A stretch of DNA of 56,938 bases from positions 1-56,938 of IMG/VR virus record IMGVR_UViG_3300030107_001272. One strand, written 5' to 3'. The stretch's first letter is position 1. Each line of letters starts with the position of its first letter. The DNA comes from a virus. This document shows positions 29,195-32,160 of this stretch, in pieces. The notes under the pieces are model-generated. The model was not told the DNA's origin and ran no database searches. It saw only the letters and a list, made by a program, of their open reading frames with translations. The position numbers and the translations under genes were made by a program.

Positions 29195-29734
29195 TTAGAA
29201 ATCTCCTCTAACTTTTTGTCCAAGATGGATTGCCTTATGCAATTCACTTTCTAACTTGGTTTGGCTATCTCTGTTAGCTTGCCATAGAATACCTAACCCA
29301 CCTGCCTCTGTCCATCTCTTGATATTAGTGTGCTTGTCATCAACAAGGATGTTAGGTGTACCATCTACCGTATGGGTAGCATAGGTTTCTTTCTTGTGAG
29401 TGAACACCAAGTAAGGTATCTTATCGGGCATGAGATTATTCCTATTCAACCAACTGCGTTTCCAATAGGCAGAGTTATCTCTGTCATTACGCAAAGGTGT
29501 AGAACATATCCCCCAATCCAAGTGAGGATATTTATATGTCAACTCTTTGACATAGCCCACGATAGGATAGGTAGTCTCAAACATACCTAAGTATCCAAAG
29601 AAACTTGTGTCTTTTAGTTGAGATAGTGCGTCATCTATATCTGGTATATCTTTCCAATGCGTTACCTTGAATCTCTTCTCAAGCCCACCAAAGAAATCGG
29701 CTAACACACCATCCATATCTAAGTATATAATCAT
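29195..29734 (-). CDS. HAD-family 5'(3')-deoxyribonucleotidase-like
   Basis: 179 residues. HAD phosphatase motifs: D6-M-D8-G-V-L-A-D (nucleophile D6), ICSTPLRND (motif II Ser/Thr), TPNILVDDKHTNIKRW (motif IV acids). The layout with GLEKRFKV as cap matches phage 5'-nucleotidase (NT5C)-like proteins that dephosphorylate dNMPs. It shares one base with the next gene upstream and belongs to the nucleotide-metabolism genes. Confidence 0.75.
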   Translation of the reverse strand: MIIYLDMDGVLADFFGGLEKRFKVTHWKDIPDIDDALSQLKDTSFFGYLGMFETTYPIVGYVKELTYKYPHLDWGICSTPLRNDRDNSAYWKRSWLNRNNLMPDKIPYLVFTHKKETYATHTVDGTPNILVDDKHTNIKRWTEAGGLGILWQANRDSQTKLESELHKAIHLGQKVRGDF

Positions 29735-30489
29735 TATAATTTCTCCTCACAAAATATTCCACATTCAAAGTTATAATTTTTAAGTGATCTACCTCTTGCA
29801 TCTATAGGTAAATCTTCAAGAGATATTCTCTTACCTTTGTAGATAGCTAACTTAGCACCTATTCTTTTTGATTGTTCCACCCTCTTAGCAAATACTTTTG
29901 GAAACTTATCACGTACTAAGTTCCAGTAGGTAGGTGATCCTGCTTTGACACACCCAATACAATTTGCATTTGGAAATCCATACTTGTATATCTTTGGTGG
30001 TTCTATATTTGCACTAGCAATTACATCAAAGCAATCCTGTTTGGTTAATCCTTCATCTACTAATACAGGTATAAGATTATTTCTCTCTGTCATAATAAAT
30101 CTATCGGCTCTTTTCTTTTCTTCAGCCGTAAATCCTAGCACAAGATAATCAGAGTTGTTTTTATTCTCCCACTGTTGCCTTGCATGTTTCTTTAGTCTCA
30201 TAGTACAAGGCGCACCTGCAATACCACTCATGTATTTGTGCTTATCCCACACAGTTTCAGCAGAGCAGTCAGGAAAGTCTTCATTAATAGCATACTCTAT
30301 CGTTATGCCTAGCCACTTCTCTACATCCTGTAAAAATCTTTGATTGTCTTCATGCTCCTCTTTCACAGGATTGTTTACAACTCTAACCCTGTTATCTTTA
30401 CCATACTTCTTCAAGGTTAAATACGTAGCAACTGCACTAGCACTACCACAAGAAAACCAAACTGTAATATCTTTATTTTTTAAACTCAT
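29734..30489 (-). CDS. PAPS reductase-like (PP-loop) protein
   Basis: 251 residues. An N-terminal PP-loop-like motif (VWFSCGSASAVATYL) has Cys where SGGxDS is usual. Further conserved points are APCTMRLKKHARQQW, VLGFTAEEKKRADRF, NANCIGCVKAGSPTYWNLVRDKFP and a terminal ECGIFCEE. The cysteines (CxxC and CxxxC) suggest an iron-sulfur cluster or thiol chemistry. Phage members are annotated as phosphoadenosine phosphosulfate reductase family. The true substrate is unknown. It overlaps the next gene by ATGA and is two genes from the DNA methyltransferase. Confidence 0.75.
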   Translation of the reverse strand: MSLKNKDITVWFSCGSASAVATYLTLKKYGKDNRVRVVNNPVKEEHEDNQRFLQDVEKWLGITIEYAINEDFPDCSAETVWDKHKYMSGIAGAPCTMRLKKHARQQWENKNNSDYLVLGFTAEEKKRADRFIMTERNNLIPVLVDEGLTKQDCFDVIASANIEPPKIYKYGFPNANCIGCVKAGSPTYWNLVRDKFPKVFAKRVEQSKRIGAKLAIYKGKRISLEDLPIDARGRSLKNYNFECGIFCEEKL

Positions 30490-30839
30490 TTTCTCGTACT
30501 TTCTATGCTGTTAATCTTGTGTTCAAGTGTATGAACAGCATGACGTAATCCATAGGTTATACTATCTGTCCACTTATCTTGTGTTATCTCTGGCTTCTCG
30601 TCAATGTACACTCTAATGTGGGTACAAGCCTCAATAGGCGCACCTTTTGACCAATAGGTATCAGGGTACTTAACCTTGTCAAGGTACTGCCCCTTGACCC
30701 TTATATTGTATCTGTGCTTGTTTAAGTATTTCTTCATCAGCCTTACCAACTGCTGTCCTTCTTCGTCATTAGGTATCTCACAGAATTGATAGCGTGAATT
30801 CTTTTGGTAGTGCTTATGCTTTTCTAAATTAGTTTTCAT
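30486..30839 (-). CDS. Hypothetical protein linked to methyltransferase
   Basis: 117 residues, basic, not recognised. Segments include KHYQKNSRYQFCEIPNDEEGQQLVRLMKKYLNKHRYNIRVKGQY and THIRVYIDEKPEITQDKW. ATGA overlaps on both sides bind it between the methyltransferase and the PAPS-reductase-like gene, so the three are surely cotranslated. Its ribosome site (AAGGAG) lies in the last codons of the methyltransferase. Confidence 0.6.
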   Translation of the reverse strand: MKTNLEKHKHYQKNSRYQFCEIPNDEEGQQLVRLMKKYLNKHRYNIRVKGQYLDKVKYPDTYWSKGAPIEACTHIRVYIDEKPEITQDKWTDSITYGLRHAVHTLEHKINSIESTRK

Positions 30840-31828
30840 CTCTTTACTCCTTTCAATGCTTGGTATCCACAGCCACAGCCATCAAACAAACTCACGACAG
30901 TACCAAGTGACTGTTCAGGTATGCCATTGAGTATGTGCTTGATCACATCCACTGTCCATCCATTACCTATCATCTTGTATCGCCTTGAATTGCTGATCTG
31001 TTTGACCTGTTTATCAGGGAAGATACCTACCTTGGTATACCAATCGGGCATAGTCTGCAATCGTTCACACTCAAGAGGTGTCAATGCTCTCCAACGTAAG
31101 TCACCATCCTCAACCTTCGGCATGCGCCACCCACCTTGCATGGTGGTCAGGCCAGAGGACTTAGCCTTACGAGAGTAGACACGCTTGATGATGTCATAGC
31201 CTTTGAGGTTAGCTTCACCCACTTGTCTGCATTGAGTATGCTTGTTGAACACCACTTGTCTACGTGCTTTCTCAAAGTACATCTTCATAGATCCACCCTT
31301 AAAATAGTTAGCGTCTACACAGTAGGCTTTCTCTCTGTCGGTCATGCTCTCATCCTCAAGGATATCCTCAAGGTTGATACCAAGATCAGGCAGATCGTCA
31401 TGGGGTATGTTAGTCCAATACAAACGCTTACGATTCTGTGCAGATACAGACGCAGAGTTATGTACACGTGGCTCACATCCGAACTCACGTGAGAACACAT
31501 CCATATATTCCTTCTTCATAGGAGTTTCTTCAATGAGAAAGTACTTAGGTTTCCACTGGTGGAACAACCTAAAGAACTCTATTGTAGGCTTGGCTCTCTC
31601 GTCATTAAAGTTAAGCTGATTACCTGCAAAGGAGAATGGTTGACAAGGTGGGCCTGCCATTAGCAGGTCTATACCTTTGTGTACATACATAGGCTGTTTA
31701 AATACATTATTTCTAACGTGCCTGATACCAAGTACACTACCTATCTGCTTTACGTCAGGGTGATTGTAGTGAGCGACCCCCATAGCGTAGGGGTCTATCT
31801 CACTTGCGAATGCTTGTTGGTATTGCAT
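30836..31828 (-). CDS. C5 cytosine DNA methyltransferase, circularly permuted
   Basis: 330 residues. Motif order is unusual. The protein opens at motif II (FASEIDPYAMGVA, residues 7-19), then IV with the catalytic Cys (G-P-P-C62-Q-P-F-S-F-A-G), VI (IEETP, E100, normally ENV), VIII (AQNRKRLYW, 130-138), a target region (VYSRKAKSSGLTTMQGG), IX (RALTPLECERLQTMP) and X (YKMIGNGWTVDVIKHIL). Motif I (VVSLFDGCGCGYQALKG), which binds S-adenosylmethionine and normally comes first, is at residues 311-327. An in-frame stop precedes the ATG, so no second motif I exists. Probably protects phage DNA from restriction. Confidence 0.9.
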   Translation of the reverse strand: MQYQQAFASEIDPYAMGVAHYNHPDVKQIGSVLGIRHVRNNVFKQPMYVHKGIDLLMAGPPCQPFSFAGNQLNFNDERAKPTIEFFRLFHQWKPKYFLIEETPMKKEYMDVFSREFGCEPRVHNSASVSAQNRKRLYWTNIPHDDLPDLGINLEDILEDESMTDREKAYCVDANYFKGGSMKMYFEKARRQVVFNKHTQCRQVGEANLKGYDIIKRVYSRKAKSSGLTTMQGGWRMPKVEDGDLRWRALTPLECERLQTMPDWYTKVGIFPDKQVKQISNSRRYKMIGNGWTVDVIKHILNGIPEQSLGTVVSLFDGCGCGYQALKGVKR

Positions 31829-32160
31829 TAGCCATTAGCCTTTCTCTTTTGTCCGACATCGGACTTTGTTACAGTGTAGCTACCCTTATCTACAGTAGCA
31901 CCCTTGCCGTACTTACGCACAATATGATCAGGGTGATTCTTCTGAATGAACTGTATCCTATAGACAATCCTATTGAATGGCTCATTCAAAGTGGAAGCAA
32001 TCTCTTTGATAGTACAATCTTGGTATACTTCCATTAGTATGCCATCAATAGTCGCATAGTTGTAGCTATAGTTCCTTGCTCGTTTCATGTGGAACGTGTG
32101 ATTGCTGTAGTCTACAATTTCTAGGGCAGGGTTATTTGCTGTGTTGATTTGCTGTGTCAT
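31828..32160 (-). CDS. Hypothetical protein, possible helix-turn-helix
   Basis: 110 residues. The middle (DGILMEVYQDCTIKEIASTLNEPFNRIVYRIQFI) looks like a helix-turn-helix, so DNA binding is possible. The C-terminus includes KSDVGQ, encoded by a copy of the palindromic repeat (31851-31864). The stop overlaps the methyltransferase ATG by one base. It may regulate the downstream genes. That is inference. Confidence 0.55.
   Translation of the reverse strand: MTQQINTANNPALEIVDYSNHTFHMKRARNYSYNYATIDGILMEVYQDCTIKEIASTLNEPFNRIVYRIQFIQKNHPDHIVRKYGKGATVDKGSYTVTKSDVGQKRKANG
31851..31864. repeat. 14-bp palindromic repeat, copy 1
   Basis: GTCCGATGTCGGAC on the minus strand (arms GTCCGA/TCGGAC, or a 5-bp stem with an ATGT loop). 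This copy lies 22 bp upstream of the methyltransferase start and inside the 3' end of the gene at 31828. It is followed by AAAAGAGAAAGG, which holds the ribosome site. Confidence 0.9.

What the first reader, a model, noticed from the sequence alone, without database searches (positions are those of the whole stretch)
30836..31828. Circularly permuted C5 cytosine methyltransferase: motif I at the C-terminus
The motifs run II-IV-VI-VIII-IX-X-I. Residues 311-330 (VVSLFDGCGCGYQALKGVKR) are the cofactor-binding start of an ordinary enzyme. The N-terminus (MQYQQAFASEIDPYA) is what should follow it, so end and start join without loss. An in-frame stop (TAA) precedes the ATG, and no other motif I copy is present. 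Known permuted C5 enzymes (M.BssHII, plant DRM) break elsewhere. Motif VI also reads EET instead of ENV. This could be a functional permutation.
Basis: partly seen in the sequence, partly recalled or inferred. Interest (0 to 1): 0.85.

Follow-up and report, generated by a model that had tools for sequence, protein, structure and literature searches.

The report
Phage cytosine methyltransferase with permuted order
A marine phage carries a DNA-methylating enzyme whose cofactor-binding start has moved to the far end of the protein; the same rearrangement is kept under selection in related phages, and it is a chain order that a published survey had found only in laboratory-engineered versions.

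Summary
ORF 30836-31828 (-), 330 aa, is a C5-cytosine methyltransferase with motif order II-III-IV-VI-VIII-TRD-IX-X-I. It is not an artefact: seven other IMG/VR contigs encode full-length relatives (68-93% identity) with motif I at the same C-terminal place, under purifying selection (pN/pS 0.23; 0.16 over motif I). No second motif I exists in the window. AlphaFold gives the C-terminus motif I's expected strand and helix. Relatives at 38-50% identity in the same phage gene neighbourhood are canonical, so the permutation arose within this phage lineage. A 2018 study (PMC5944983) made this topology artificially (cp33M.SssI, cp35M.MpeI, active) and reported that every natural permuted C5 enzyme in REBASE breaks in the variable region. 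The break here, 9 residues before the motif II Glu, matches to within a residue. I also found a second natural topology, IV-X-I-II-III, in 38 distinct phage proteins, and a fused tandem methyltransferase (L321), the intermediate that permutation by duplication predicts. Motif VI EET is fixed in this clade (ENx elsewhere) but keeps the catalytic Glu. Activity, target site and benefit to the phage are untested. Verdict: a real, conserved, probably functional circular permutation; a new variant of a known enzyme kind.

The parts
30836..31828 (-). Circularly permuted C5-cytosine methyltransferase gene, 330 aa, order II-III-IV-VI-VIII-TRD-IX-X-I
31781..31810 (-). Motif II (FASEIDPYAM, residues 7-16); new N-terminus is 9 residues before Glu10
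   Evidence: profile block II 37.5 bits; sequence
31730..31744 (-). Motif III (IGSVL, residues 29-33); usual Asp is Ser31 here
31631..31657 (-). Motif IV with catalytic Cys62 (AGPPCQPFS, residues 58-66)
   Evidence: block IV 110.9 bits; Cys invariant
31523..31540 (-). Motif VI FLIEET (residues 97-102): catalytic Glu100 kept, Asn->Glu101, Val->Thr102
   Evidence: fixed in all clade members
31418..31438 (-). Motif VIII QNRKRLY (residues 131-137)
31109..31393 (-). Variable region / target recognition domain (residues 146-240), 54-61% identical to TRDs of several canonical phage relatives
31043..31093 (-). Motif IX (residues 246-262, RALTPLECERLQTMPD)
   Evidence: block X profile includes IX
30929..30982 (-). 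Motif X (residues 283-300, RYKMIGNGWTVDVIKHIL)
   Evidence: block X 93.1 bits
30902..30928 (-). Linker joining the old C-terminus (X) to the old N-terminus (I), residues 301-309
   Evidence: sequence; similar-length linkers in other permuted proteins
30839..30901 (-). Relocated motif I (residues 310-330, TVVSLFDGCGCGYQALKGVKR): strand 310-314 and helix 318-327
   Evidence: block I 23.3 bits, E=1.7e-6; AlphaFold pLDDT about 72-84
31828..32160 (-). Upstream 110-aa gene, stop overlaps the methyltransferase start (TAATG); no motif I in it
   Evidence: 57-90% identical orthologues next to every clade member
30486..30839 (-). Downstream 117-aa gene, start overlaps the methyltransferase stop (ATGA)

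Best explanation
It is a circularly permuted C5-cytosine DNA methyltransferase whose new ends lie in the loop between motif I (strand 1 and helix A of the SAM-binding fold) and motif II (strand 2). The old C-terminal helix (motif X) is joined by a short linker to motif I. The relocated motif I most likely packs back into its usual place in the same chain, so the active site is that of a normal C5 methyltransferase: it binds SAM, flips a cytosine and methylates it with Cys62 and Glu100. The gene most likely arose in this phage lineage by tandem duplication or fusion of a canonical gene at the same locus, with later trimming of both ends. It most likely methylates phage DNA so that host restriction enzymes do not cut it. 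Shown: order, conservation, purifying selection, position, single copy. Predicted: fold. Inferred: catalysis, route of origin, anti-restriction role.
For: Seven further contigs with full-length relatives and the same order. pN/pS 0.23 overall and 0.16 for motif I, with dS 0.3-0.8 against the window. The clade is monophyletic at 100/100. Same gene neighbourhood as canonical methyltransferases of related phages. Catalytic Cys, Glu, Arg-x-Arg and Asn and the motif I glycines are invariant in the clade. AlphaFold pTM 0.72, C-terminal strand-helix confident. PDB matches DNMT3A/B and M.HhaI, best E 6e-12. Engineered cp33M.SssI and cp35M.MpeI were active in E. coli; by alignment M.MpeI residue 35 is 10 residues before the motif II Glu, against 9 in the window. 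Canonical methyltransferases in head-to-tail tandem exist in phages and a fused tandem one exists (L321).
Against: No biochemical data. Asn-to-Glu in motif VI is not seen in any relative outside the clade, and Asp-to-Ser in motif III could weaken SAM binding. Motif I has a low profile score (23 bits, against about 45-60 in canonical relatives such as those). The N-terminal residues 1-9 and most of the TRD are modelled with low confidence. The long branch to the clade (1.15) shows unusually fast change after the split.
Confidence: 0.82

Rival explanations
1. The protein works only as an intertwined dimer: the C-terminal motif I of one chain completes the SAM site of the other (domain swap), rather than folding back within the chain.
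For: C5 methyltransferase fragments complement each other in trans, for example M.MpeI 1-61 with 62-395. The new termini and linker leave room for exchange.
Against: The X-to-I linker is short and the native termini of C5 enzymes lie close together (PMC5944983), which favours closing within the chain. The monomer model is reasonable.
Confidence: 0.08
2. The enzyme is a degraded or repurposed methyltransferase fold (for example a DNA-binding or decoy protein) that no longer methylates.
For: Clade-specific changes in motif VI (EET) and motif III (Asp to Ser); long branch.
Against: All other catalytic residues are invariant and dN/dS is low throughout, including motif I and the TRD. Motif III Ser or Asn also occurs in 11 of 108 canonical relatives.
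Confidence: 0.09
3. Assembly or sequencing artefact, or a frameshift that hides a normal N-terminal motif I.
For: None found.
Against: Same order in 8 separate contigs from different sample sets; no motif I remnant in any frame nearby; gene overlaps on both sides fix the ends.
Confidence: 0.01

Closest known systems
Engineered circular permutants cp33M.SssI and cp35M.MpeI (Albert et al. 2018, PMC5944983)
   Same: Break between motifs I and II, about 9-10 residues before the motif II Glu; order II...X-I; these constructs methylated DNA in E. coli
   Different: Made in the laboratory from CG-specific bacterial enzymes; here the order is natural, conserved in a phage clade, and has its own evolved linker
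Natural permuted C5 enzymes M.BssHII, M.Alw26I, M2.Eco31I, M.Esp3I, M2.BsaI (type H)
   Same: C5 methyltransferases with motif X before motif I in the chain
   Different: [quoted passage not shown] this one keeps VIII-TRD-IX continuous and breaks between I and II
Plant DRM methyltransferases
   Same: Rearranged C5 catalytic domain (motif IX/X region precedes motif I)
   Different: DRM order is VI-X then I-V (own knowledge); weak sequence similarity only
Canonical phage C5 methyltransferases (phrog_116; e.g. Roseobacter phages CRP-9 and CRP-603, and IMG/VR relatives at the same locus such as L027, L068, L100)
   Same: 38-50% identity, same TRD type in several, same gene neighbourhood in the IMG/VR ones
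   Different: Canonical I-X order with motif I at the N-terminus; motif VI ENV
Second permuted phage group found here (order IV-X-I-II-III; e.g. L092, L166, Phage nd4 OR777945.1)
   Same: Natural permutation with motif X joined directly to motif I, similar linker length
   Different: Break lies between motifs III and IV; AU test does not reject common origin of the marine members with this clade (p=0.43), but the best tree separates them

Membership tests
C5-cytosine DNA methyltransferases (PF00145) | Profile match above the curated cut-off | tested here: met
   93.9 bits against a cut-off of 22
C5-cytosine DNA methyltransferases (PF00145) | Catalytic Pro-Cys (IV), Glu (VI), Arg-x-Arg (VIII), SAM-binding F-x-G-x-G-x-G (I) | tested here: met
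C5-cytosine DNA methyltransferases (PF00145) | Motif VI in the full form ENV (typical, not strictly defining; the Glu is the catalytic residue) | tested here: not met
   EET in all clade members; the catalytic Glu is kept, so family membership is not in doubt
C5-cytosine DNA methyltransferases (PF00145) | Transfers methyl to C5 of cytosine | not testable with these tools
   -
Circularly permuted C5 methyltransferase (any type) | All blocks present once, motif X before motif I in one open frame | tested here: met
Natural type H permuted C5 enzymes (M.BssHII kind) | N-terminus in the variable region between VIII and IX | tested here: not met
   VIII, TRD and IX are contiguous
Plant DRM | Order VI-X, I-V | tested here: not met
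   order II-IV-VI-VIII-IX-X-I
I|II permutants (engineered cp33M.SssI / cp35M.MpeI) | Break between motifs I and II | tested here: met
   new N-terminus 9 residues before motif II Glu; 10 in cp35M.MpeI by alignment; 9 in cp33M.SssI from own knowledge of its sequence

The most novel reading that the evidence does not exclude
Phage C5 methyltransferases are repeatedly circularly permuted in nature through fused tandem duplicates, giving at least two topologies (I|II and III|IV) that had been seen only in engineered enzymes, with intermediates still present in phage genomes; in this clade the permutation is accompanied by a fixed change of motif VI from ENV to EET that may compensate for it.
Probability: 0.6. 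Interest if true: 0.75.

Novelty: new variant of a known kind. Interest (0 to 1): 0.64.

Why it matters
A systematic engineering study noted that nature seems to use only one of ten workable permutations of C5 methyltransferases and suggested that breaks near the SAM site (between motifs II and III) might cost cofactor affinity. Here are natural enzymes broken next to the SAM site, kept under purifying selection, with canonical relatives at the same locus for comparison. That makes the question directly testable and gives a natural series (single gene, tandem genes, fused tandem, two permuted forms) for studying how proteins change topology. Such enzymes may also be misannotated or missed by tools that expect motif I first.

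Tried and rejected
Hidden or displaced motif I upstream: none in any frame within 900 bp, or elsewhere in the window. Assembly error: rejected by independent contigs. Cellular genomes: the 11 relatives found included no permuted form among those that could be classified. GenBank phages: no I|II permutant found. Single origin of all permuted forms: best tree needs four changes of order, but one origin is only marginally disfavoured (AU p=0.064; this clade with the marine III|IV members p=0.43; with the marine and L166-168 members p=0.12), so I do not claim four independent events. No restriction-site avoidance test was made. Two literature searches failed on their terms.

Full report
What is there. 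The ORF at 30836-31828 on the minus strand begins at an ATG that overlaps the previous gene's stop (TAATG), ends in a stop that overlaps the next gene's start (ATGA), and encodes 330 residues. Pfam PF00145 covers residues 4-303 but only from profile position 23 on, so the first 22 positions of the profile, where motif I lies, are missing from the N-terminus. With block profiles built from canonical relatives the order is II (residues 9-37 of the open frame), IV-VIII (55-140), IX-X (248-308) and I (313-328), counted with two residues before the ATG. Motif I scores 23.3 bits, E=1.7e-6 among 1005 ORFs; it is the only significant motif I in the window, and none of 20000 shuffles of the tail reaches the real score.

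Is it real? A scan of IMG/VR found seven further contigs with full-length relatives at 68-93% identity (L007-L013), all ending in VVSLFDGCGCG[YF]QALKGV[KRQ]R and starting at the same place. The seven distinct genes show pN/pS 0.23 overall and 0.16 for residues 310-330, with dS 0.3-0.8 between the window and the others. This excludes an assembly error and argues against a decaying gene. No motif I remnant lies upstream and no motif II-III remnant downstream in any frame.

Where it comes from. The canonical relatives at 38-50% identity include genes in the same neighbourhood: the upstream 244-aa, 81-aa and 92-aa gene families and the downstream endolysin and integrase families flank canonical methyltransferases in many related contigs (L027, L040, L044, L068, L077, L097, L100, L118, L144 and others). 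The permutation therefore most likely arose within this phage lineage at this locus. Phage methyltransferase genes in head-to-tail tandem are present in several fetched contigs (L033, L083, L111, L161, L164, L186), and L321 holds a single 568-aa frame with the order I-II-IV-X-I-II-IV-X, which is the intermediate that permutation by duplication requires. The 11 relatives found in cellular genomes gave no permuted form. The closest cultured phages by DNA are marine roseophages (CRP-1, CRP-345, CRP-738).

A second topology. Searching with the joined motif X-motif I stretch brought up another natural permutation, IV-VI-VIII-TRD-IX-X-I-II-III, broken between motifs III and IV: 38 distinct proteins from IMG/VR contigs and from GenBank records MT836645.1 and OR777945.1 (Phage nd4). 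In a tree of concatenated blocks the window's clade is one group (100/100), and the III|IV proteins fall in three places; strongly supported branches force at least three changes for them. Common origin of the window's clade with the marine III|IV proteins is not rejected (AU p=0.43), with the marine and L166-168 groups p=0.12, and of all permuted proteins p=0.064. The number of origins is thus between one and four, most likely more than one.

How it probably works. The break lies in the loop between helix A and strand 2 of the SAM-binding fold, 9 residues before the motif II Glu. AlphaFold (23 sequences) gives pTM 0.72, a strand at 310-314 and a helix at 318-327 with block pLDDT about 72-84, and a strand at 5-9, as expected if motif I packs back into its normal place; I could not measure the contact itself. 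A III|IV relative (L166) modelled in the same way gives pTM 0.71 with its relocated motifs I-III at pLDDT 85-97. The best PDB matches of the window model are DNMT3A/B and M.HhaI. Catalytic residues are kept. Two clade features are unusual: motif VI is EET, where 108 of 108 canonical and 18 of 18 other permuted relatives have ENx, and motif III Asp is Ser in 4 of 6 clade rows. The TRD is 54-61% identical to those of several canonical relatives, so the target may be shared. The likely role, protection of phage DNA from host restriction, follows from the general biology of orphan phage methyltransferases and is inferred.

Comparison with what is known. PMC5944983 built permuted M.MpeI and M.SssI. 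cp35M.MpeI and cp33M.SssI were active in vivo, though cp35M.MpeI was poorly soluble; alignment to the M.MpeI chain puts residue 35 ten residues before the motif II Glu. The same paper searched REBASE and found 27 natural permuted C5 enzymes, all broken in the variable region, and remarked that the most active other topology (break between II and III) did not seem to occur naturally. Literature searches here found no later report of natural I|II or III|IV forms, but the library holds open-access papers only, and REBASE itself could not be searched.

Verdict. The enzyme is a member of the C5 methyltransferase family by sequence and a new variant by topology. Activity remains to be shown.

Noticed in passing
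L090-L093, L166-L168, L170-L191, L206, L239-L243, L319-L322, L399-L417; GenBank MT836645.1 (L159) and OR777945.1 (L160): Second natural permuted C5 methyltransferase topology (IV-X-I-II-III), 38 distinct phage proteins; one large group starts directly with motif IV (MKLLIGGSPCTHWS...).
   Followed up: yes
L321:2310-4014: Single open frame encoding two complete C5 methyltransferases in tandem (I-II-IV-X-I-II-IV-X, 568 aa), in a 282-kb viral contig.
   Followed up: partly
L321:4861-6331: Third methyltransferase in the same array carries an intein-like insert in motif IV at the catalytic Cys (GGSPC-FTAGNLVMTNDG...VVNNLIVHN-CQGFS), judged by eye.
   Followed up: no
L005:1413-1507 (PQ867839.1): Annotated phage cytosine methyltransferase has an in-frame TAA just after motif I (LNVLSLFDGKSSG*PARERAGIPV); the annotated protein starts after it and lacks motif I.
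   Followed up: no
L174:2317-4240, L178:2578-4867, L182:2806-4864: Some III|IV permuted methyltransferases carry a long C-terminal extension that resembles a GNAT-type acetyltransferase domain (judged by eye, not searched).
   Followed up: no
window 29734-30489: Phosphoadenosine phosphosulfate reductase-like phage gene (phrog_424, PF01507) close downstream of the methyltransferase.
   Followed up: no
window 31705-31744: Window-specific insertion after motif III (around GIRHVRNN) absent from the other clade members, together with motif III Asp to Ser.
   Followed up: partly
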